35,385 bases of DNA, taken from positions 1 to 35,385 of the IMG/VR virus record IMGVR_UViG_3300027508_000021; one strand, 5' to 3'. Origin of the DNA: a virus. A program made the translations under genes and the position numbers. Below are positions 1 through 35,385 of this stretch, piece after piece. The notes beneath the pieces were generated by a model. The model saw only the letters and a program-made list of their open reading frames with translations. It did not search any database and was not told the DNA's origin. The stretch's first letter is position 1. The number at the start of each line of letters is the position of its first letter.

Positions 1-257
1 TCCTTAGCCGTTAGCTCGTCAGCAGAAAGGCTTTCCACGGTCACAGCGTAAACGTCACCGCCTTCGAGATAGGCTTCGCAGGAAACCAGCTTCTGTGTGG
101 CTGCGTCGTGTGCCTTGAAATAGGTCACTGGAACAAGGTTGTTCTCAGCCATCCATTCAGCTTCAGGCCCAGATGCAGGGAATGATACGTTAGGGAACAG
201 GACGTATAGGTCACCCGTCTGTTCGATGGCTCCATTATTTACGATAGCGACAATCAT
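1..257 (-). CDS. Tail fibre assembly chaperone-like protein, 5' part only (cut by window start)
   Basis: The ATG is at 257, preceded by a good GGAGG ribosome site, and 85 codons are present before the window ends. The encoded residues appear identical to the first 85 of the complete gene at 34477-34926, although the DNA differs at about eight positions, all synonymous. The missing C-terminal part would hold the CDWTQL-type motif typical of phage tail fibre assembly proteins. It lies directly downstream of the LamG fibre gene, the usual place for a fibre chaperone. It is probably the same locus as 34477-34926 seen in another strain, not a second gene. Confidence 0.8.
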   Translation of the reverse strand, partial: MIVAIVNNGAIEQTGDLYVLFPNVSFPASGPEAEWMAENNLVPVTYFKAHDAATQKLVSCEAYLEGGDVYAVTVESLSADELTAK

Positions 258-716
258 TTTCGCCTCCAGTTACTTATTCGGGAATGCCGCTGTGGGCGGT
301 GTGAAGTTTGCGGTGTAGCGGGCAACGCCTTTGGTAATGCGAAGGTCGTCGATGTAGCCGTTGAGATATTGCGCTTGCGTGTTGCTTTCAGCGCCAATCG
401 TGAAGTTGTTCGTTGCGTTGTAGAGAGCGGACGAGTTAGTCGTTGATGCTCTTGATGTGCCATCTACATAAATCGTAAACGTGCTTCCGTTGCGAACAGC
501 AGCGATGTGATACCACTGACCTGTGGACAACGTGAAAGATGTTGACGACGTAGATAGGTCAAACAGAACTGAAGACCCATTTGATGACGTAATCAATCGT
601 AAATACCCTGACGATCCAGACGAAAGCATCAGCGCCCAGCTAAGAGTTGTTCCCCCAGTATCGCCAGACCACTGGCCCATTATCATCGCTTCGTTGGCTA
701 GTGAGTTGAAATACAC
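1..716. repeat. Left copy of a 716-bp near-identical direct repeat at the two contig ends
   Basis: These bases align without gaps to 34670-35385 (offset 34669), with about 29 substitutions by manual comparison, roughly 96% identity. The repeat begins exactly at the first base and ends exactly at the last base of the window. That is what overlapping ends of a circular or ligated genome look like. Almost all coding differences are synonymous; one Ala/Ser change is seen in the LamG gene. The inexact match suggests strain variation rather than a true terminal repeat. A real duplication in the genome cannot be excluded from sequence alone. Confidence 0.93.
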
Positions 717-21399: not shown

Positions 21400-22100
21400 T
21401 TGAACCCTACCTGCCGTCTCATCTGAGCGTCGAACAAGCGTTGGAAGTTAGCCTTCACATAACGCTGAGATGTTCCATAGAAATCGTAGATGGGTTTGTA
21501 GGTCGGTGCGGTCTGAGTAATGGCAAGCTCAACCGTGACTGAGCCAGCAGTCCGACGCGCAATGGCGATAGGCTCAGAGCCACGATACATGACGAAGAAG
21601 TCTGATGTGCGCCGCTTACGTTTGGCTGATGCCGTCGTCTCGTTCATGTTGCCTTTACGCTGCGCCTGAAGCTGGGAGAGCATCCGCTGATACTGCCCGC
21701 CATTCTTCAGTGTCGTGCTATCACCCTTGTTGGTGTACGACCCCGCAGGAATAAGCCCTGCCTTGAACAGAGCTACTTCGTGAGGCTTAAACCGACGCTT
21801 GCCGCCCACGATGTTAGGGGACAAGTATTTGTGGCTTTGACGGCCCTTGGCTTCCTTCTCAGCGAAGTAGACCCCTGCCTTCGTGTAATCGTTACCGGCC
21901 TTGTACGGTGTGCGGGCGCGGATGGCGTTGAGAGTGTATGGCACAACTGACTTGAAGGTCGTCCGCATGACCCGCTGCTGCTCACTACGCAAATCGTAGG
22001 CCAGCTTACCGAATGCCTTGTCAGTGGACTTGTCGATCCCCTTTTCGATCTTAGTTGTCCGCTTGATGACGGCAGCGATGTTGTCAGTGACGTTTATCAT
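21396..22100 (-). CDS. Hypothetical basic protein, possibly minor tail gpZ-like
   Basis: This is 234 residues from the ATG at 22100 (MINVTDNIAAVIKRTTK); a longer open frame to 22196 overlaps the lipoprotein gene and is less likely. It is rich in Lys/Arg and has KSVVPYTLNAIRARTPYK, FFVMYRGSEPIAIARR and a C-terminal RYVKANFQRLFDAQMRRQV helix. The layout (helix, basic linker, strand hairpin, C-terminal helix) recalls lambda Z-like minor tail proteins. But it lies about 10 kb from the tail genes, among early genes, so that guess is weak. It overlaps the lipoprotein gene by 17 nt. Confidence 0.6.
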   Translation of the reverse strand: MINVTDNIAAVIKRTTKIEKGIDKSTDKAFGKLAYDLRSEQQRVMRTTFKSVVPYTLNAIRARTPYKAGNDYTKAGVYFAEKEAKGRQSHKYLSPNIVGGKRRFKPHEVALFKAGLIPAGSYTNKGDSTTLKNGGQYQRMLSQLQAQRKGNMNETTASAKRKRRTSDFFVMYRGSEPIAIARRTAGSVTVELAITQTAPTYKPIYDFYGTSQRYVKANFQRLFDAQMRRQVGFK

Positions 22101-22251
22101 TTGTGTACTTGATGATTTGACGCTGCACCTGTTCAGTTTGCAGACGCGCCATATTCTGACGGATTTGGATGCGCTCTTCGTATGTGACCTGCTCAAACGA
22201 TGCGCAGCCAGTTAACGACGCTCCGATCAAAAGTGCGACAATTCCCTTCAT
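22084..22251 (-). CDS. Small lipoprotein
   Basis: This 55-residue protein starts at the ATG at 22251, with a GGAAGG ribosome site and an ATGA overlap with the gene upstream. It has a short signal peptide with a lipobox-like SLTGC (Cys15 as the candidate lipidated residue), then a helical charged region (TYEERIQIRQNMARLQTEQ). It is probably anchored to a membrane facing the periplasm. It could be an outer-membrane spanin subunit or an exclusion-type lipoprotein. It is not proline-rich like Rz1 and lies far from the endolysin, so spanin identity is doubtful. Confidence 0.7.
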   Translation of the reverse strand: MKGIVALLIGASLTGCASFEQVTYEERIQIRQNMARLQTEQVQRQIIKYTNDKRH

Positions 22252-22418
22252 TTGCCTTCCTTTCTTCTCTTCCACTCGACTATATCCCAGTCGCTTTCAC
22301 CCCAGTCCCAAGGCCTCCAGCGCCACTTCTTTGGTTCAACGCTGCGGACTATATGCCCGTTTCTTAACTTGAGGTCTACAAATTCCGCTTTCGGTGGGAA
22401 TCCCCTGTTGCTTGGCAT
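22248..22418 (-). CDS. 56-residue tryptophan-rich protein
   Basis: A frame from the ATG at 22418 to a TGA that overlaps the lipoprotein ATG encodes MPSNRGFPPKAEFVDLKLRN and, after SVEPKK, a Trp-rich run (WRWRPWDWGESDWD) with six Trp in about 18 residues, ending in a basic tail. The frame has a GGTGAAGAAG sequence upstream of its start. Its 5' half is read over the last 83 nt of the gene at 22336-22566 in another frame. The dense aromatic run, good codon sense and coupled stop support a real gene. Family not known to me; no membrane segment. Confidence 0.72.
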   Translation of the reverse strand: MPSNRGFPPKAEFVDLKLRNGHIVRSVEPKKWRWRPWDWGESDWDIVEWKRRKEGK

Positions 22419-27974: not shown

Positions 27975-28384
27975 TGCGTCCACTATACGAAACACAACAA
28001 GACCTAGACCGGGAACGGGAAGCCATCATTAGCCTATGCGCTAAAACAAGCTCCCGCCCGGTCAAATTGCCTATCTCTGCCCATGCTGATTACATGATGG
28101 TAAGGGACAATGAGGCCAAGGCTATTGTTGAGGTTAAATGCCGTAAAAACAATCGGTTAGCCTACGACACATACATGATCTCTAAGCATAAATATGAAGG
28201 GCTTTTATCGTGGACCAACTATGGTCTTATGCCGATCCTGCTTGTCAGTTGGGCGGATTCTATCGGCTATATACGGCTTCCCTGCCAGCACGAAATCGCA
28301 AAAGGCGGACGCACTGACAGGGGAGACGCTCAAGATATTGAGCCAGTGGTCCACATTAAGACCACCGACTTCATACTTATTTAG
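27974..28384 (+). CDS. PD-(D/E)XK-like nuclease domain protein
   Basis: This 136-residue protein has SAHADYMMVRDNEAKAIVEV then KCRKNNR, the D...E-x-K pattern of a PD-(D/E)XK core (Asp about 39; Glu about 53; Lys about 55). Next come YDTYMISKHKYEGLLSW and LLVSWADSIGYI, typical of the trailing strands of small phage nucleases. It may process phage DNA or act on host DNA. It is the last rightward gene. Its stop overlaps the stop of the leftward gene by 4 nt with no terminator between them. Confidence 0.7.
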   Translation: MRPLYETQQDLDREREAIISLCAKTSSRPVKLPISAHADYMMVRDNEAKAIVEVKCRKNNRLAYDTYMISKHKYEGLLSWTNYGLMPILLVSWADSIGYIRLPCQHEIAKGGRTDRGDAQDIEPVVHIKTTDFILI

Positions 28385-28572
28385 AGGAAGTACTCGACAG
28401 CCGCGAGAAGCAAGCCAGCGATACCGCCGCCTACAAATAGCTTCTTGCCTATGCCGCTCTTCTCAACAACGGGATCAATGATCTTCTGGACAGGAACATC
28501 GTCCAGCTTGTCCTTGATCTTCTTCAGCGCAGCTTTCTTGGCAACGCCTGTCAGTTTGCTTTCAATACCCAT
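28381..28572 (-). CDS. Small membrane protein, possible holin or lysis accessory
   Basis: This 63-residue protein has an ideal AAGGAGG before the ATG at 28572. It begins with a basic amphipathic region (MGIESKLTGVAKKAALKKIK) and ends in a hydrophobic helix (LFVGGGIAGLLLAAVEYFL, about 45-63). The gene follows the endolysin by about 10 nt. One C-terminal membrane segment and neighbouring endolysin suggest a holin, pinholin or regulator, but two other holin candidates exist in this block. Role uncertain. Confidence 0.65.
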   Translation of the reverse strand: MGIESKLTGVAKKAALKKIKDKLDDVPVQKIIDPVVEKSGIGKKLFVGGGIAGLLLAAVEYFL

Positions 28573-28582
28573 AACGTCCTCC

Positions 28583-29194
28583 TTAGAGCCAAGAAGCGTA
28601 CTTCTTGGTCTTCATTTTACGGTCATCCAGCCCATGCGTACCGCCATTGATACGCTTCGTGAGAGCAAGGATAGCCGCATCCGTTATGCCTTGGTCACAG
28701 ATCGACCAGAGCTTGTTGCGGTCAAAGAACCACAGCGCGGATTCAAAGCAGAGTTCCCCAGCCACAAGGTCCGGGTTCGTCATCACATCAGGCCGTCCGA
28801 TATAATCAGCGAATGCCTGATAGTTTGACTTGCCGGTAAGCTGAAGAGCGCCGCGACCACGATATTTCCAGCCATCACCAGAAGTCTCATCTCCGTTGCC
28901 CATACGATTGGCATAAACACGGTTGGCAATGCGCTCTGGCTGACGTTCGTAGTTCTTAGCCATGCCTTCAGTGGGGAAATACTTGCGGAAGATGCCAAGC
29001 AGCCCCTTCGCGCCGTAGTTCAGGTTCTCGCTGAATGCCTTAAAGTTGCCACTTTCGTGAGCCGTCTGAGCAAAGAAATGCGCAGCACGGGCCTTGTTCA
29101 ACTTATAGTAGGCAGCAGCAGACGCGAGTGTGCCGGGGCCAAACGCACCATCAGCCGTAATGCCGATCTTAGCTTGTAGGTTCTTCAGGCTCAT
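28583..29194 (-). CDS. GH19 endolysin
   Basis: This is 203 residues from the ATG at 29194, which overlaps the upstream stop (ATGA) and has AGGA upstream. It belongs to glycoside hydrolase family 19: AHFFAQTAHESGNF (catalytic Glu47), NLNYGAKGLLGIF, then WKYRGRGALQLTGKSNYQAF, and LTKRINGGTHGLDDR at the end. These enzymes cleave beta-1,4 bonds in peptidoglycan. The first about 30 residues (AKIGITADGAFGPGT) look like a shortened peptidoglycan-binding motif. There is no signal peptide, so a holin is needed for release. Confidence 0.93.
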   Translation of the reverse strand: MSLKNLQAKIGITADGAFGPGTLASAAAYYKLNKARAAHFFAQTAHESGNFKAFSENLNYGAKGLLGIFRKYFPTEGMAKNYERQPERIANRVYANRMGNGDETSGDGWKYRGRGALQLTGKSNYQAFADYIGRPDVMTNPDLVAGELCFESALWFFDRNKLWSICDQGITDAAILALTKRINGGTHGLDDRKMKTKKYASWL

Positions 29195-29691
29195 TTTCCT
29201 GCACTCCGCCAATCTGGAAAATCATTCTCATCAATTACGCCATCACCATTAAGGTCATAACGCATATCCTTAGCGTGAATTTCCCACGGCTCTAAAACAC
29301 CATCTCCGTCGAGATCGACAGGCTCATCTAGCTCCAGTTCTTCCTGCACAGGATCTTCAATAGGTGCAGCCATAGGAGCAGGTGGAGGGGTAGGAGCAGC
29401 CGGTTCAGGTGCTGGTGCAGGTTCTGGTTCCGGGTCATCCCGATCTTCAGGAGGCGGTGGAACCAACTCACCCTTCATACCCATCAGGGTAGCATAAGAG
29501 CCAGCCACAGCGCCGACCACAGAGGTCATGACGTAGCTGAGAAGGCCGAATACGTCCTTATTGTCGATAATCTCGTTTGACACGAATAGGCCAACAATCA
29601 TGGCGCAGGTGATAGCGACAATGACAAAAGCCATCGTCTTTGCAGCCATCAAAAGCGCCTTAATTCGCGCCTCTAATAGTTTGTCTTCCAT
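29191..29691 (-). CDS. Membrane protein with two EF-hand-like loops, lysis block
   Basis: This 166-residue protein has two hydrophobic helices (about 18-38 and 47-71), then a Pro/Glu/Ala-rich linker (about 77-115), then two canonical calcium-binding loops. They are DLDGDGVLEPWE (126-137) and DLNGDGVIDEND (146-157), each with acidic side chains at positions 1, 3 (Asn in the second), 5, 9 and 12. They are placed as in paired EF-hands or a dockerin. Directly upstream of the endolysin with an ATGA overlap, it is the best two-helix holin candidate in the phage. Calcium might control its assembly or topology. Holin role is inference. Confidence 0.75.
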   Translation of the reverse strand: MEDKLLEARIKALLMAAKTMAFVIVAITCAMIVGLFVSNEIIDNKDVFGLLSYVMTSVVGAVAGSYATLMGMKGELVPPPPEDRDDPEPEPAPAPEPAAPTPPPAPMAAPIEDPVQEELELDEPVDLDGDGVLEPWEIHAKDMRYDLNGDGVIDENDFPDWRSAGK

Positions 29692-29693
29692 AT

Positions 29694-30221
29694 TTACTCC
29701 CTTCCGGCGAGTGGATTCGCCAGCGTCTTAGTGATGCGGTCATCAACTTGCTTCTCAAGCTCTTTGATCCGCCTCTGTTGCTCCACATCCTGTGCGCGGA
29801 GTTCCTGAATAATAGCACGTTGGGATTGCATTGTCTCCCTTTCGGAAACTTGCGTCCTTGCAGATACCGCGTCAACCGTTTGACGGGTACTCATAACACT
29901 ACTGCCAACGCTGCTAGAAAGGGCTGACAGATTATCCGATAAATACTTGGTCGTCTCCAAGTTCATGCGGATCATGCGCTCGTTGCTGTCCTGCCGCTCT
30001 TTCATCTTATTAAACTCATCGCCCATAGACGCATAGGTGGAGGTAACCTCCTGCATGGTCAGGAACTGCTGGTAGACTTGGAACCCGGCCCAGAGTGAAC
30101 CGACGACAGTCGAGATCGCCGCAAAGATGATAGCAATCTTGCCGCTGCTTAATCCGCCAATGTTGAAGCTAAATCCGCTTTCATCAAACGCGACCTTCGA
30201 TTCTTCTTTTTCGTCACTCAT
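29694..30221 (-). CDS. Membrane-anchored coiled-coil protein, i-spanin-like topology
   Basis: This is 175 residues from the ATG at 30221, chosen for its GGAGG 6 nt upstream; it overlaps the upstream stop by 8 nt. A short acidic N-terminus leads to one hydrophobic helix (about 28-50), then a long charged coiled coil to the end (EFNKMKERQDSNERMIRM, later QDVEQQRRIKELEKQVDD). N-in, one anchor and a periplasmic coiled coil is the topology of inner spanins such as Rz (153 residues). No embedded outer spanin was found here. A structural or signalling role is also possible. Confidence 0.65.
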   Translation of the reverse strand: MSDEKEESKVAFDESGFSFNIGGLSSGKIAIIFAAISTVVGSLWAGFQVYQQFLTMQEVTSTYASMGDEFNKMKERQDSNERMIRMNLETTKYLSDNLSALSSSVGSSVMSTRQTVDAVSARTQVSERETMQSQRAIIQELRAQDVEQQRRIKELEKQVDDRITKTLANPLAGRE

Positions 30222-32034
30222 ATTGGTCCTCCACCATGTCATCCCATGCCTGATCCTGTCCCCTCATCATTCGATATAATGCCAAATTTGCATCCGGTAT
30301 GCGACGACCCTTGTAGATGTCCTTGGGCTGGTAAAACGGCATATCCGGTATCCGAGCTTGCGTGTATGCCCCATACCCCTCTGGGACCGCTGCAAGTTGC
30401 GTCATGACCGCGTTATCTTCTGAGTTCATGTCACCGACATCAGCAGGTGTGCCAGCCGACATCTCATTCTGCATTCCCATGTTGAGCAGTTCCATCTGCT
30501 GCGCTTGCCCTACAGGTGTAGTCATATCACCCATGCCGGTGACAGGTGCTGCTGCAAACGTCGGGCCTTCAGTGGGCTGAATAGAATAAGTCTCGCCATT
30601 TGTTTCAGTCGTTTTCTGCTGCCCAAATTGCTCGACATATTGAGCATCGGCTTGCGCTAAAAATGCGACGTTTTGCAGACTTGCCTGTAGCACCGTCTCA
30701 CGGGAGAATGTGTCAGCGTCTTCGATTGCCTCACGCTGAAAGAAGTCCACGTTTTTATCATTGCGAGAATCAGAGCCATTTAAAGCGATTACAGACGCAT
30801 CGTTTGCGCTTGCGGTACTTACTGCCAAAACTGACGATATAATGCTCTGAGCGGCCTCTAAATCGCTTTTAAGGGTATCTGGGCTATCATCCTTGCGGTC
30901 TGTGCGTTGAGTGTCGCTTTGAGATGCGTCAATCGCCTGAGATTTATCCTGAGTTGATGAAGTTGAGATAGTTGACCTGCCATCTTCGGATTTGGCTGCG
31001 TCAGATGCCGACTGCGCCTCAGATGCGGATTCAGCAACAGCTTCCATCGCGCCAGATAATTCAGCCTGAGTTATATCATCGGACATAACTGTAGAATCCT
31101 GTGACGCAGCCAGAGCAGTGACTTCACTTGGGTCAAGTCGATCCACATCTTCAGATTCAGCAACCTCTTCTGTTTCTGCAACCTCCTCAACAACCGTCTC
31201 TTCAGCTTCAACAATCTCTTCAGCAACAGTTACCTCTTCGACAGCAGCCTCAACTTCTTGTTGAATTTCAACAACTTCTTCAGTCTCTTCTTGCGGCGTA
31301 TCGATTACCACATTTGTGGCATCCTCTTCTGTCATCTGCTCTTGCACAGGCTCATCAACAGTTACCGGGTTATCGATAATATCAGGTGCGCCAGTAGGTG
31401 CAATTTGCATTGGCGGCTCTGGCTCTGGCTCTGGTTGGGTTGCAGGTACGCCAGCGATGTATGATGTGTTGTCTAGTACATTAATGTTCTGACCGTAAAA
31501 AAGGCTAATGCTGTCAGCCATCGTCGGGCCAGTTAGGCCAGCAGACACGATGTGATACTGGTTGTTCATGTCGCCATAATTCCATTGAATTTTCCCATCA
31601 GGGAACAAGGCAATCTCAAATGTGTTTCTTAGGTTTGTGCCGTATTCGTATGTATTATACCAACCAAATACGGCTGCATCTGAACTGCTACGGTAATAAG
31701 GGTTTCCGCCACTAATCAGGTCAGACCATGATGCGTAAATCGCATTGCGCGGAGCTTGCTCTATAGGCATCCCATTGCAGCAAAGATGGTTGTTGCTTTG
31801 GAATGAGATAAACCCGTTGGTCGATACCCATGCAGAGGTAAATGTCTGGCCGAAATACTCAAACGGGAACGCAAACTGCACAACGCTTGTGCTGTCATCG
31901 CCACCATTGATCGGTGTCATTGTCTGGGGTGAACCAATGAATTGAGGCGGAATCAAGACCGGATTGTAGTCTTGCGCCGCAACAGGCCAGCAGATCAGCG
32001 CCGCGAGGATGACTTGGGCTTGTTTTCTTCCCAT
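30214..32034 (-). CDS. Exported protein with NIDO-like beta domain and acidic repeats
   Basis: This 606-residue protein has a signal peptide (MGRKQAQVILAALICWPVAA, cut before QDYNP). Residues about 40-205 form a beta-rich domain with FAFPFEYFGQTFTSAWVSTN, GFISFQS and FEIALFPDGKIQWNYGDM, the style of NIDO-like extracellular domains. Then come a PEP stretch and a highly acidic helical run of VEE/EEV units (about 215-300). A Ser/Ala/Asp-rich linker and an amphipathic C-terminus complete it. It would be outside the cytoplasm. Large exported proteins are rare in phages, so it may act in envelope remodelling, exclusion or as a virion surface protein. Not recognised as a described family. Confidence 0.7.
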   Translation of the reverse strand: MGRKQAQVILAALICWPVAAQDYNPVLIPPQFIGSPQTMTPINGGDDSTSVVQFAFPFEYFGQTFTSAWVSTNGFISFQSNNHLCCNGMPIEQAPRNAIYASWSDLISGGNPYYRSSSDAAVFGWYNTYEYGTNLRNTFEIALFPDGKIQWNYGDMNNQYHIVSAGLTGPTMADSISLFYGQNINVLDNTSYIAGVPATQPEPEPEPPMQIAPTGAPDIIDNPVTVDEPVQEQMTEEDATNVVIDTPQEETEEVVEIQQEVEAAVEEVTVAEEIVEAEETVVEEVAETEEVAESEDVDRLDPSEVTALAASQDSTVMSDDITQAELSGAMEAVAESASEAQSASDAAKSEDGRSTISTSSTQDKSQAIDASQSDTQRTDRKDDSPDTLKSDLEAAQSIISSVLAVSTASANDASVIALNGSDSRNDKNVDFFQREAIEDADTFSRETVLQASLQNVAFLAQADAQYVEQFGQQKTTETNGETYSIQPTEGPTFAAAPVTGMGDMTTPVGQAQQMELLNMGMQNEMSAGTPADVGDMNSEDNAVMTQLAAVPEGYGAYTQARIPDMPFYQPKDIYKGRRIPDANLALYRMMRGQDQAWDDMVEDQYE

Positions 32035-33206
32035 GCCGCTGCCGCCTCTTTGCCAATCTTGCCTTCATACGGGCAAGGTGTGCCAGCCATCTTCATGGCA
32101 TCAAATACGCGCTCATCCTGACAGAGCAGTGACACAGCAGCTACCCGCATACCCATGTCGTATAGCGTCTTAGATAGCTTCAGGGCTTCGCAGTTCTTGT
32201 CGCGCACAGTCTTGCCAGCAGAGAAGCCGAGAATTTGCGTCTGCACAGCCCCAGAGACCCCAGAGGTGCAGAGGTCTTGGCTGTAGCTCATTATAGACGG
32301 CGCAATGGCTGAAGGAGGAGGTGACTTGATATTTTGATCGATTACCTGCCGATTCACGCTTTCGCTGTAACTGGTAGACTTACTATCATTTACATTGATG
32401 TTGTTGTTCTGATTGACATTTGTGTTCTCTGATACCGACGTATTCTGGTTGACGTTGGTGTTGGTGCTGACAGAGCGACTGTCGTTGACGTTCGTGTTCA
32501 CGTTAAGGCTCTCGCTAGTTGAGACATTCGTGTTCACGTTTGTATTATTCGATGTGCTGGTTGAGGTGCTATCGTTGTAGTTGCGATTGGTATTATCGCT
32601 CGTCGATAAGCTGTTGTTTTGATTGATGTTTGTGTTCGTCGATGTTGACGTATTCAAGTTGGTATTCGTCGATGTCGATGTGCTGACGTTGGTGTTCAGG
32701 TTCTCAGACGTAGACGTATTCACATTGTTATTGTTGTTCGTGTTCGTCGATGTCGAAACGTTTGTGTTTAGATTTGTATTTGCCGACGTACTAGTGACGG
32801 TGCTGGCATTGGTGCTGTTCACTGTCTGATTGACCGTGCTGGTCGAGACATCGGTATTAAAGTTGTTGTTGGTCGCCGTGCTGGTAGACGTATTCGTGTT
32901 CTGATTGATGTTCGTAGCGGTCCCAGATTGCACATTATTATTCGTGTTAATCGATGTGCTAGTAGACGTATTTACGTTGTTATTCGTGTTGACGTTCGTC
33001 GATGTCGCCGTGCTGGTCGATGTCGAGACATTGTTATTGTTGTTCGTGTTCGTGCTGGTAGCCGTCGATGTAGACGTATTCACGTTCGTATTAGCATTTG
33101 TTGCTGTCGAAGTTGTCGTCGTGTCGTAGACGTAGTTGGTGGTCTGGGCGACCACCATGCTAGACCAGCCGACTGCAATGAGAACGAGAAAGCGTTTATT
33201 TACCAC
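31995..33206 (-). CDS. Exported Asn/Thr/Ser-repeat protein with Cys-containing C-domain
   Basis: This 403-residue protein has a GTG start with AGGTGG upstream. A signal peptide (about 1-20, ending VVA) is followed by about 250 residues almost purely of Asn, Thr, Ser and Val, in units like NTNVNTSTST. The C-terminal about 110 residues are globular: SYSQDLCTSGVSGA, KNCEALKLSK, SLLCQDERVFDAMKM and GTPCPYEGK, with four Cys that may pair in the periplasm. N-terminal repeats carry many N-x-S/T sites. It overlaps the next exported gene by 40 nt. The C-domain likely acts; the repeats may form a stalk or be modified. Not recognised. Confidence 0.75.
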   Translation of the reverse strand: MVNKRFLVLIAVGWSSMVVAQTTNYVYDTTTTSTATNANTNVNTSTSTATSTNTNNNNNVSTSTSTATSTNVNTNNNVNTSTSTSINTNNNVQSGTATNINQNTNTSTSTATNNNFNTDVSTSTVNQTVNSTNASTVTSTSANTNLNTNVSTSTNTNNNNNVNTSTSENLNTNVSTSTSTNTNLNTSTSTNTNINQNNSLSTSDNTNRNYNDSTSTSTSNNTNVNTNVSTSESLNVNTNVNDSRSVSTNTNVNQNTSVSENTNVNQNNNINVNDSKSTSYSESVNRQVIDQNIKSPPPSAIAPSIMSYSQDLCTSGVSGAVQTQILGFSAGKTVRDKNCEALKLSKTLYDMGMRVAAVSLLCQDERVFDAMKMAGTPCPYEGKIGKEAAAAWEENKPKSSSRR

Positions 33207-33414
33207 GATCCGCCACCTGCTGTAATCGATCTTCGATTCGCAAGAGGTGCGTCATCATCGTATCAAAGCGACGATCAATAGAGTCGAATTTCTCGTCCCC
33301 AAATTGAAGACGCGCTTCCAGTTTCGTCAGACGGGTGTTCAGATTGGTCCACACGCCAATCAGACCCCCTACAAAACTTAAAACCGTCACTATCGTATTG
33401 ATGTCGATTTCCAC
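33196..33414 (-). CDS. Small membrane/coiled-coil protein (XhlA- or holin-like)
   Basis: The GTG start at 33414 has GGAG 7 nt upstream. The 72-residue product has an N-terminal hydrophobic helix (INTIVTVLSFVGGLIGVW, about 5-22) and a coiled-coil tail (LNTRLTKLEARLQ, then RRFDTMMTHLLRIEDRLQQ). This layout is seen in XhlA-like lysis proteins and some holins. It overlaps the end of the glycosyltransferase frame by 140 nt in a different frame and overlaps the next gene by 11 nt. A role in lysis or in anchoring exported proteins is possible. Confidence 0.65.
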   Translation of the reverse strand: MEIDINTIVTVLSFVGGLIGVWTNLNTRLTKLEARLQFGDEKFDSIDRRFDTMMTHLLRIEDRLQQVADRGK

Positions 33415-34456
33415 GAATAAGCTCCAGATTCGACTTTAGACGCTCGTTATCTGGTTCGTGTAATACAGCATTTTGAGCTTCAATGACAGCATCTTCTTGC
33501 AAGCCAAGGTGGTAGGCAGAGATAGCCGCCATATCATGTAGTTTGGCTCCCCAGACTGACGGATCACAGGTATAGACCAGCGCCTTATCCGTAATCTTTA
33601 GCCCTGATTTGGCGGCATGGTGGCAGGTGTCCCAGTCATTGAGCCGATAGGCTTGCATGGCTAGATCAGCCCAAGGCTCACGGGTGTTAGGTGCTTCAGC
33701 CGTTGCCCGACGCAGCCACTTCATTGCTTCCCATGTCTCGCCACGCTCCGCATAACTCTGGCCCAGCAACCGCATCGCATAGCAACGCTCATTAGGCCAA
33801 TCAGCACCCGGCATATCCAAGTAGCTGTGCAATGCCCCTATAGCCTCCTCCCAGAGCCTGTAGAACGTCAATTCACGGGCAAAGTAGAACGCATTACGCG
33901 GACAGGCTGGGTCTTCCTTCACAGCCAGCCGGAGAAGGTCCAGATATTGCCCACGGCTCTTGGTTGGATCAGGCAGGTGACGCACTAGCAGCTTGTCGGT
34001 GTGAGCATAGACCTCAGTGATCCGGCCATCAGGCACAGGATACTCATGAACAGGATGATGGAAGCGATAGCCGTTCTTCGCAAATATCTTCTCATAGTAG
34101 AACGTGATGTCGCATCCCCAATCAAAGAGATACCGAAGCCGTGTTGTCTCAGGTGTCCAAACACGCTCGATCTCCTCACGCCAACCCGGCTCAAGCACTT
34201 CGTCTAAGTCTAGGCTAATGATAACGTCCACATCAGCCGGTATAAGCGCCAGTGCGGCATTGCGGGCCACATCAAAGCGCCAAGGCTTTACACTGATGTC
34301 ATAAACTGTAGCGCCGCATTTATGGGCAAGTTCGGCAGTGCCATCATCGCTACCAGTATCTGCGATGACGACATAATCAGCATCCGCGCATGATGCCATG
34401 AACCTCTCAACGAATGCAGCTTCGTTCTTTGAGATTGCGCTAACAGCGATTTTCAT
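33275..34456 (-). CDS. Family 2 glycosyltransferase with TPR repeats
   Basis: This 393-residue protein has GGAAGGGG before the ATG. The N-terminal domain (about 1-190) is a GT-A fold: MKIAVSAISKNEAAFVERFM, IADTGSDDGTAELA, and IISLDLDEVLEPGW containing the DxD metal motif, then FHHPVHEYPVPDG. The rest (about 195-350) is helical with TPR-like pairs, as in many bacterial glycosyltransferases. It may modify virion or exported proteins, or host glycans. The last 46 codons are read over the 5' part of 33196-33414 and look unlike TPR sequence, so the C-terminus may be an overprinted extension. Confidence 0.85.
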   Translation of the reverse strand: MKIAVSAISKNEAAFVERFMASCADADYVVIADTGSDDGTAELAHKCGATVYDISVKPWRFDVARNAALALIPADVDVIISLDLDEVLEPGWREEIERVWTPETTRLRYLFDWGCDITFYYEKIFAKNGYRFHHPVHEYPVPDGRITEVYAHTDKLLVRHLPDPTKSRGQYLDLLRLAVKEDPACPRNAFYFARELTFYRLWEEAIGALHSYLDMPGADWPNERCYAMRLLGQSYAERGETWEAMKWLRRATAEAPNTREPWADLAMQAYRLNDWDTCHHAAKSGLKITDKALVYTCDPSVWGAKLHDMAAISAYHLGLQEDAVIEAQNAVLHEPDNERLKSNLELIRGNRHQYDSDGFKFCRGSDWRVDQSEHPSDETGSASSIWGREIRLY

Positions 34457-34476: not shown

Positions 34477-34926
34477 TTAACTAACCCATTCTTCCGTCGG
34501 AGCTTCAGGCCACACAGGAGCCAGAAGGTCCATGTCACGCAGGGCTTGGCGATAATCAGCAAAAGCCGTCTTGCAATCAGCCGTCAGGTTAACGTCTGCA
34601 AGCTGCGTCCAATCGCACAGAGCCAGCTTCGAGTTACGCACATTGCGGTTACCAGCCTTTGTGGCTTCATCCTTAGCCGTTAGCTCGTCAGCAGAAAGGC
34701 TTTCCACGGTCACAGCGTAAACGTCACCGCCTTCGAGATAGGCTTCGCAGGAAACCAGCTTCTGCGTGGCAGCATCGTGCGCCTTGAAATAGGTTACTGG
34801 AACAAGGTTGTTCTCAGCCATCCATTCAGCTTCAGGCCCAGAGGCAGGGAACGATACGTTAGGGAACAGGACGTATAGATCACCCGTCTGTTCGATGGCT
34901 CCATTATTTACGATAGCGACAATCAT
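34477..34926 (-). CDS. Tail fibre assembly chaperone-like protein
   Basis: This is the complete gene of 149 residues. Its N-terminal half has IVNNGAIEQTGDLYVLFPNV and AEWMAENNLVPVTYFKA. The C-terminal half has RNVRNSKLALCDWTQLADV then TAFADYRQALRDMDLLA, which is the Caudo_TAP-type signature (RN..L..CDWTQL...YRQALRD) of fibre assembly proteins. Such proteins trimerise fibres without being in the final virion. GGAGG lies 5 nt before the ATG. It is followed leftward by the glycosyltransferase. A truncated allele is at the start of the window. Confidence 0.82.
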   Translation of the reverse strand: MIVAIVNNGAIEQTGDLYVLFPNVSFPASGPEAEWMAENNLVPVTYFKAHDAATQKLVSCEAYLEGGDVYAVTVESLSADELTAKDEATKAGNRNVRNSKLALCDWTQLADVNLTADCKTAFADYRQALRDMDLLAPVWPEAPTEEWVS

Positions 34927-35385
34927 TTTTGCCTCCAGTTACTTATTCGGGAATGCCGCTGTGGGCGGTGTGAAGTTAGCAGTGTAGCGGGCTACGCCTT
35001 TAGTGATGCGAAGGTCGTCGATGTAACCATTGAGATACTGGGCTTGCGTATTGCTTTCAGCGCCAATTGTGAAGTTGTTCGTTGCGTTGTAGAGAGCAGA
35101 TGAGTTAGTCGTTGATGATCTTGATGTGCCATCTACATAAATCGTAAACGTGCTTCCATTGCGAACAGCAGCGATGTGATACCACTGACCTGTGGACAGC
35201 GTGAAAGATGTTGATGACGTAGATAGGTCAAAGAGAACTGAAGACCCATTTGATGACGTAATCAGGCGTAAATACCCTGACGATCCAGACGAAAGCATCA
35301 GCGCCCAGCTAAGAGTTGTTCCCCCAGTATCGCCAGACCACTGGCCCATTATCATCGCTTCGTTGGCTAGTGAGTTGAAATACAC
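34670..35385. repeat. Right copy of the 716-bp end repeat
   Basis: This copy matches 1-716 with about 29 substitutions and no gaps. It spans the 5' part of the fibre assembly gene, a 12-base spacer with the ribosome site, and the 3' 447 nt of a LamG gene. Because it runs to the last base, it marks the point where the circular map closes. Compare the left copy for interpretation. Confidence 0.93.
34939..35385 (-). CDS. LamG-domain tail fibre, 3' part only (cut by window end)
   Basis: The last 148-149 codons of a LamG fibre are present, ending at the same stop and sequence as the complete gene at 270-2270. The third LamG module is covered (IMGQWSGDTGGTTLSWALML, IAAVRNGSTFTIYVDGTS, GYIDDLRITKGVARYT). 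One residue differs (Ser for Ala in the GTSR.S segment); other base changes are silent. It probably represents the same gene in another strain, interrupted by the contig end; the start lies outside the window. Confidence 0.85.
   Translation of the reverse strand: MYFNSLANEAMIMGQWSGDTGGTTLSWALMLSSGSSGYLRLITSSNGSSVLFDLSTSSTSFTLSTGQWYHIAAVRNGSTFTIYVDGTSRSSTTNSSALYNATNNFTIGAESNTQAQYLNGYIDDLRITKGVARYTANFTPPTAAFPNK

What the first reader, a model, noticed from the sequence alone, without database searches (positions are those of the whole stretch)
28381..34456. Unusual exported-protein block between fibre chaperone and endolysin
A glycosyltransferase, an XhlA-like protein, two large signal-peptide proteins (403 and 606 residues), a coiled-coil anchor, an EF-hand membrane protein, an endolysin and another membrane protein are all overlapped or tightly packed in one direction. 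Most phages use three or four small genes for lysis. The two exported proteins have no evident lysis role, so a joint system for the host surface (exclusion, biofilm or glycan change, virion release) is plausible and appears undescribed to me.
Basis: partly seen in the sequence, partly recalled or inferred. Interest (0 to 1): 0.75.

Follow-up and report, generated by a model that had tools for sequence, protein, structure and literature searches.

The report
Exported three-gene module in lysis cassettes
Two large exported proteins and a membrane anchor sit beside this phage's cell-bursting genes, and the same three genes in the same order recur in hundreds of unrelated water-dwelling phages, which points to an undescribed factor acting on the host cell envelope near lysis.

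Summary
In detail: all the genes are there, co-directional and overlapping, between a tail-fibre assembly chaperone and a GH19-type endolysin. It is three genes: A (403 aa, exported, N/T/S repeats plus a four-cysteine domain), B (606 aa, exported, β-domain head, acidic stalk, conserved tail) and C (182 aa, inner-membrane coiled coil ending in NPL). A was found in at least 600 IMG/VR contigs. In 115 of 116 fetched loci with room, A is followed directly by B and C, in podo-, sipho- and myophages of SAR11, Roseobacter and unknown hosts. NPL ends 94 of 96 distinct C proteins. B heads are swapped between close relatives. All genes tested are under purifying selection. The module lies inside lysis cassettes: an endolysin is within 3 kb in 13 of 19 records (3.8 expected), a two-TM holin-like gene often precedes A, and 14 loci carry an overlapping Rz/Rz1-like spanin pair beside it. 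That last fact excludes a universal spanin replacement. The glycosyltransferase and 63-aa gene are local extras. Best reading: an accessory lysis-stage envelope complex. Mechanism is inferred, not shown. Known pelagiphage curli genes are a different cassette, and I found no description of this one.

The parts
31995..33206 (-). gene A, 403 aa: signal peptide, N/T/S-rich repeat region, C-terminal domain with four invariant cysteines
   Evidence: phrog_20531 (unknown function) E=3e-17
32352..33143 (-). A residues 22-285, repeat region: 75% N+T+S, preferred spacings 2 and 12-16 residues, conserved at protein level (dN/dS 0.03) while synonymous sites differ
32031..32348 (-). A residues 287-392, family-defining domain (C313, C339, C362, C378 invariant)
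   Evidence: tblastn hits in 10 phage records
30214..32034 (-). gene B, 606 aa: signal peptide, beta-domain head, acidic stalk, conserved tail
31444..31968 (-). B residues 23-197, head (NIDO-like by weak sequence match in one relative; confident AlphaFold beta domain, pLDDT mostly 82-96)
30595..31434 (-). B residues 201-480, acidic stalk (24% D+E, 5% K+R), low-confidence or helical in the model
30217..30594 (-). B residues 481-606, tail conserved with A and C among close relatives while the head is swapped
29694..30242 (-). gene C, 182 aa: one N-terminal TM segment, coiled coil, C-terminal NPL motif
29709..29717 (-). C residues 176-178, NPL motif (94 of 96 distinct C proteins)
33196..33414 (-). 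X72, 72 aa, N-terminal TM plus coiled coil (XhlA-like), directly upstream of A in 48 of 80 related loci; similar 80-aa gene upstream of A in Roseobacter phage CRP-810
29191..29691 (-). D, 166 aa: two TM segments plus C-terminal EF-hand; holin candidate
29221..29256 (-). canonical EF-hand loop of D (DLNGDGVIDEND), the motif being present in all 80 D homologues
28583..29212 (-). endolysin (GH19/chitinase-like, phrog_181), no signal peptide
28381..28572 (-). 63-aa protein with C-terminal TM; holin-size, present in 3 of 80 related loci
33275..34456 (-). glycosyltransferase (phrog_13126); local accessory gene, 3 of 80 related loci
34477..34926 (-). tail-fibre assembly chaperone, upstream border of the block

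Best explanation
A-B-C is a portable module that makes an exported complex in the host envelope and belongs to the lysis stage. Shown by sequence: A and B carry export signals and no lipobox; C has one N-terminal TM, a coiled coil and an almost invariant C-terminal NPL; B's head is swapped while its tail, A and C stay together; the three genes are inseparable and sit in lysis cassettes. Inferred: C is held in the inner membrane with its coiled coil and NPL end in the periplasm, where NPL docks on the Cys domain of A or the tail of B. B's acidic stalk projects the head, which binds a host-specific outer-envelope glycan or surface layer. Once holin and endolysin have acted, the complex helps open or detach the outer envelope so that virions get free. 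It works beside classical spanins where those exist, and possibly instead of them in phages such as this one, where I found none.
For: A-B-C contiguous in 115 of 116 loci with room. NPL in 94 of 96 C proteins. Endolysin within 3 kb in 13 of 19 records against 3.8 expected, P about 4e-6 ignoring relatedness. Two-TM holin-like gene just upstream of A in about 30 loci, and an overlapping Rz-like/lipoprotein pair within about 4.3 kb of A in 14 loci. GTA-type holin directly before A in Mosig. In T7-like pelagiphages C-type proteins occupy the position T7 uses for its spanin Rz: holin-A-B-C-TerS-TerL in S28-C10 against holin-C homologue-small exported protein-TerS-TerL in HTVC019P and HTVC200P (T7 order from general knowledge). 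The window's nearest isolates, CRP-822-type roseophages, have only lysis genes at this locus. Head swap: window vs L095, head 31%, B tail 74%, A 80%, C 77%. No PF03245 (Rz) above cut-off in 32 module-bearing records.
Against: No function is shown for any of the three proteins. Some genomes carry the module far from the endolysin (HTVC202P, HTVC115P, Baldr, L129). Large, lectin-like, rapidly swapped heads are unusual for lysis proteins and fit surface binding as well. No outer-membrane targeting signal was found. A's structure could not be predicted (pLDDT 43), and complex formation was not tested. HTVC115P's C lacks NPL. One D-endolysin contig (L071) has no A-B-C upstream.
Confidence: 0.45

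Rival explanations
1. Surface-matrix or adhesin module: A forms an amyloid-like or beta-solenoid fibre from its N/T repeats, B is a swappable adhesin head, C anchors them. Infected or lysing cells become sticky (the 'sibling capture' idea proposed for phage curli) or are shielded from competing phages.
For: A's repeat is selected at protein level with alternating and 12-16-residue spacing. B heads are adhesion-like and swapped. Curli/T8SS cassettes exist in pelagiphages (PMC7029224, PMC9599517).
Against: No exporter (CsgG/CsgF) is in the cassette and no OM signal was found. The consistent place is the lysis cassette. No curlin match in Pfam. Aggregation was not seen with the curli-bearing phage Melnitz (PMC9004378).
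Confidence: 0.25
2. Non-canonical spanin: C is the i-spanin, and A or B replaces the lipoprotein o-spanin.
For: C has i-spanin topology. C homologues lie at the T7 Rz position in pelagiphages. No Rz family above cut-off in 32 records. A few C proteins match phrog_739 'Rz-like spanin' weakly.
Against: 14 loci carry A-B-C plus a separate overlapping Rz/lipoprotein pair. No lipobox in 148 A proteins and no credible one in 135 B proteins. The window C has no cysteine for an intermolecular disulfide. phrog_739 also rings in 9 of 14 control genomes.
Confidence: 0.15
3. Lysis-timing or late superinfection-exclusion device: a periplasmic regulator of holin or endolysin, or a late surface block.
For: Adjacent to holin-like genes. 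The swapped lectin-like head could sense or mask the surface. Periplasmic regulators of this type exist (T4 RI, general knowledge).
Against: Three proteins totalling about 1,200 aa are large for a timing regulator. No sequence link to RI, Imm, Sp, Cor or Llp was found, though this was not specifically searched.
Confidence: 0.1
4. Virion structural proteins (fibre-like) that happen to lie between tail fibres and lysis genes.
For: Tail-fibre genes are immediately upstream in the window. Lectin-like and repeat-rich sequences are common in fibres.
Against: Both carry N-terminal export signals, which virion proteins assembled in the cytoplasm do not need. Some carriers have the module away from tail genes, e.g. 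before TerL in HTVC202P and Baldr.
Confidence: 0.05

Closest known systems
Two-component spanins (lambda Rz/Rz1, T7 18.5/18.7; overlapping marine Rz/lipoprotein pairs)
   Same: Lysis-cassette position; C is an N-terminally anchored coiled-coil protein with a conserved C-terminal tip; overlapping genes
   Different: No lipoprotein partner; two large SPase I-type exported partners; can coexist with a separate spanin pair
Pelagiphage curli / type VIII secretion cassette (CsgG, CsgF, CsgA/B, HK, FecR, AC)
   Same: Exported proteins, repeat-rich candidate fibre protein, shared across podo- and myophages of SAR11
   Different: No CsgG, CsgF, FecR or kinase named next to A-B-C in the annotated carriers; different gene set and order; lysis-cassette location
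PHROG phrog_20531
   Same: Matches A residues 237-392 (E=3e-17)
   Different: Listed as unknown function; says nothing of the A-B-C linkage
NIDO (nidogen-like) and jelly-roll/CBM-like domains
   Same: B heads resemble them weakly: Pfam NIDO E=0.0035 in 1 of 44 members, 'carbohydrate binding' annotation in HTVC033P and S28-C10
   Different: Window B has no Pfam hit; no significant PDB fold match; the acidic stalk and conserved tail are not part of those families
Phage Mu releasin (extra lysis protein)
   Same: Precedent that lysis cassettes hold components beyond holin, endolysin and spanin (abstract of PMC9239132, plus general knowledge)
   Different: Single small TM protein acting on the endolysin; no sequence or architecture shared with A-B-C

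Membership tests
Two-component spanin | i-spanin: N-terminal TM and periplasmic coiled coil | tested here: met
   C: one predicted TM near the N-terminus and a coiled coil in most of 96 distinct sequences
Two-component spanin | o-spanin: outer-membrane lipoprotein with lipobox as partner | tested here: not met
   0 of 148 A proteins; 8 of 135 B proteins match the pattern but with Cys inside the hydrophobic core before an obvious SPase I site. Only small lipoprotein in the window is at 22084-22275, far from C
Two-component spanin | Sequence match to known spanin families | tested here: inconclusive
   PF03245 none above cut-off in 32 records; phrog_739 weak on a few C proteins but unspecific
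Two-component spanin | Only OM-disruption system in the phage | tested here: not met
   14 carriers also have an overlapping Rz-like/lipoprotein pair
Two-component spanin | Restores outer-membrane lysis to a Rz/Rz1-deficient phage | not testable with these tools
   needs a bench complementation
Curli / T8SS cassette | CsgG pore and CsgF chaperone in the cluster | tested here: not met
   No such gene among window block proteins or in annotated neighbourhoods
Curli / T8SS cassette | Curlin repeats in the fibre subunit | tested here: not met
   No Pfam hit for A at E 0.1; repeat is N/T-rich with 12-16-residue spacing
Holin (class II-like) for D | Small protein with two TM segments next to the endolysin | tested here: met
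   D: two predicted TM segments, directly before the endolysin in the related loci
Holin (class II-like) for D | Membrane-permeabilising activity | not testable with these tools
   bench test needed
Virion structural protein | Present in purified virions | not testable with these tools
   no proteomics found

The most novel reading that the evidence does not exclude
Aquatic phages of Gram-negative hosts carry a further lysis component besides holin, endolysin and spanin: an exported, membrane-anchored complex with an exchangeable outer-envelope-binding head, held together through a C-terminal NPL tip. In the window-type phages it is paired with an EF-hand holin that could respond to calcium entering through a failing membrane.
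Probability: 0.3. Interest if true: 0.82.

Novelty: categorically new. Interest (0 to 1): 0.64.

Why it matters
Phage lysis of Gram-negative cells is taught as three layers opened by three kinds of protein, worked out mostly in enterobacterial phages. A module found in at least 600 viral contigs, in phages of SAR11 and Roseobacter, and wired into lysis cassettes alongside those three kinds suggests that common ocean and freshwater phages do something more at the envelope when they burst their hosts. The swapped heads of B would also give a genetic handle on what they bind on hosts that are hard to study. Cultured carriers exist (HTVC033P, CRP-810, CRP-207, HTVC023P), so the idea can be tested directly.

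Tried and rejected
Whole eight-gene block as one unit: rejected, GT and 63-aa gene in 3 of 80 loci. Curli: rejected on gene content. A's repeats as DNA slippage or low-complexity noise: rejected, dN/dS 0.03 and only two short tandem-repeat rows in 30000-33300. Structure of A: AlphaFold low confidence. PDB fold search of B: no significant match; the viral library gave three at E<0.001, all of unknown function or a weakly related name. tblastn of B and D against annotated phages: nothing. Close relatives of B in IMG/VR: only two, identical to the window. Genome scan for A: nine MAG contigs of mixed phyla, read as binned phage DNA, not as a cellular family (not examined further). Four apparent 'A' hits after the endolysin were tail-fibre low-complexity matches on contigs cut upstream. 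Searches for an earlier description: none found; subscription journals and preprints are not covered.

Full report
What is there. The window is a 35.4-kb IMG/VR virus record of a siphophage with an HK97/lambda-type head and tail module. Its nearest isolates by terminase are the CRP-822-type roseophages (about 62% identity; PMC12629253). X72/A, A/B, B/C and D/endolysin overlap by 11-40 bp.

Are the odd proteins real? Yes. Between the window and L016, dN/dS is 0.05 for A, 0.03 for its low-complexity repeat alone, 0.19 for B, 0.03 for C and 0.04 for D. A's repeat is therefore kept at protein level while synonymous sites drift.

What is conserved. A's C-terminal domain (four invariant Cys) was first found by tblastn in ten phage records: pelagiphages HTVC202P, 115P, 023P and 033P, Baldr, the T4-like Mosig, the Autographivirus S28-C10, the roseophage CRP-207, and two spring-water phages. 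In the fetched loci, A is followed directly by B and then C in 115 of 116 cases with at least 3.5 kb of room; the exception is L134. C has an N-terminal TM, a coiled coil and a C-terminal NPL in 94 of 96 distinct sequences; the two exceptions are HTVC115P and a truncated ORF. Where the C profile failed, the NPL protein was found by eye in L123, L129, L133, L140, L156 and L157.

The window-type group. The EF-hand protein D occurs in 126 contigs. In 80 fetched loci the order is (X72)-A-B-C-D-endolysin wherever the contig reaches that far, with one exception, L071. GT and the 63-aa gene are in 3 of 80. D ends in an invariant canonical EF-hand. EF-hand two-TM proteins with the opposite domain order follow C in CRP-207, and lie downstream of B in L134.

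Architecture of B. AlphaFold gives a confident beta head (residues 23-197, pLDDT mostly 82-96), an uncertain stalk and a helical tail. The head is weakly NIDO-like (Pfam E=0.0035 in one relative). Between the window and L095 the head is 31% identical and is of the jelly-roll type in L095, while B tail, A and C are 74, 80 and 77% identical. Against the more distant L015 the head is 54% and the tail 34%. This is a head swap. The stalk is acidic in most families (28-35% D+E), except in the short B of roseophage CRP-207 (and, by eye, CRP-810).

Where the module sits. Using Pfam endolysin families and annotation, an endolysin lies within 3 kb of the module in 13 of 19 records where one was found, against 3.8 expected (P about 4e-6, not corrected for relatedness). 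Several unrelated endolysin types are involved. A holin-like two-TM protein lies directly upstream of A in about 30 loci, and in 14 loci an overlapping Rz-like/lipoprotein pair lies within about 4.3 kb of A, upstream or downstream. Examples: L164 reads holin, A, B, C, small gene, Rz-like, lipoprotein, endolysin; L147 reads Rz-like, lipoprotein, holin, A, B. In S28-C10 the order is holin, A, B, C, small gene, TerS, TerL. In HTVC019P and HTVC200P, relatives that gave no A hit, a C-type protein resembling HTVC115P's C and a 70-aa exported protein stand in that place, which is where T7 has Rz and Rz1 (general knowledge). In the roseophages nearest the window, the same locus holds only lysis genes, including N-terminal TM/coiled-coil proteins.

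How it most likely works. The shown facts are export signals, one inner-membrane anchor, an invariant tip on the anchor, a conserved body with an exchangeable head, strict linkage, and residence in lysis cassettes. From these I infer a membrane-anchored exported complex that engages the outer envelope at lysis. It cannot simply be the spanin, because true spanin-like pairs coexist with it in 14 loci. In the window itself no Rz/Rz1 pair was recognised, so a spanin-like duty there is not excluded. The rival I take most seriously is a surface matrix or adhesin, since A looks fibre-like and B looks like an adhesin.

Known or new. The curli/T8SS genes of pelagiphages (PMC7029224, PMC9599517, PMC9004378) are a different gene set. 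The spanin survey (PMC6139136) found no spanins in 91 of 677 phages, so gaps in lysis annotation are common. PHROGs holds A's domain as unknown function. I found no description of A-B-C in open-access full text. 'Categorically new' refers to its failing the tests for each known kind considered; the function is not established.

Limits. Loci share ancestry, so counts are not independent. The IMG/VR lists are the best 80 of more. Signal and TM predictions are simple hydropathy and motif rules, so my export calls rest on consistency across families rather than on a trained predictor (124 of 126 A and 98 of 114 B pass, against 172 of 652 background ORFs, a background that includes A and B).

Noticed in passing
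window 29191-29691 (-); L008 3870-4226; L134 5729-6073: EF-hand plus two-TM proteins (holin candidates) recur next to A-B-C, with the EF-hand C-terminal in one group and N-terminal in the other. If N-in, the calcium loop would be cytoplasmic in both, suggesting a calcium-sensing holin.
   Followed up: partly
window 22084-22275 (-): Small lipoprotein (63 aa, LTGC lipobox) far from the lysis genes, overlapping the annotated start of a tail-protein ORF. It could be an exclusion lipoprotein or a detached o-spanin.
   Followed up: no
L136 5396-6155, L164 10380-11073, L147 3507-4254, L114 3565-4372, L155 10150-10918: Overlapping Rz-like/lipoprotein pairs in marine phage contigs. The i-spanin hits phrog_739 in some of these; the lipoprotein family was not checked against any library.
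   Followed up: partly
L184 5104-5469 (HTVC019P), L183 5212-5571 (HTVC200P): Unannotated TM/coiled-coil proteins resembling HTVC115P's C, followed by a 70-aa exported two-Cys protein at the T7 Rz/Rz1 position; candidate spanins of T7-like pelagiphages.
   Followed up: partly
L008 3292-3873 and L182 6875-8683: Database annotations of C as 'lysozyme' (CRP-207, CRP-810) and of A as 'OmpA family protein' (CRP-810) look wrong.
   Followed up: partly
window 33275-33414: The last ~40 codons of the GT lie outside its family match and overlap X72, as if the GT 3' end had been replaced or frameshifted.
   Followed up: no
window 1-269 and 34939-35385: The record's end cuts a LamG-type gene whose domain is repeated three times in 270-2270. 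The contig ends probably fall in a repeat of a circularly permuted genome.
   Followed up: no
L071 1500-6200: A contig with D and endolysin but neck genes instead of A-B-C upstream, showing that D-endolysin can exist without the module.
   Followed up: partly
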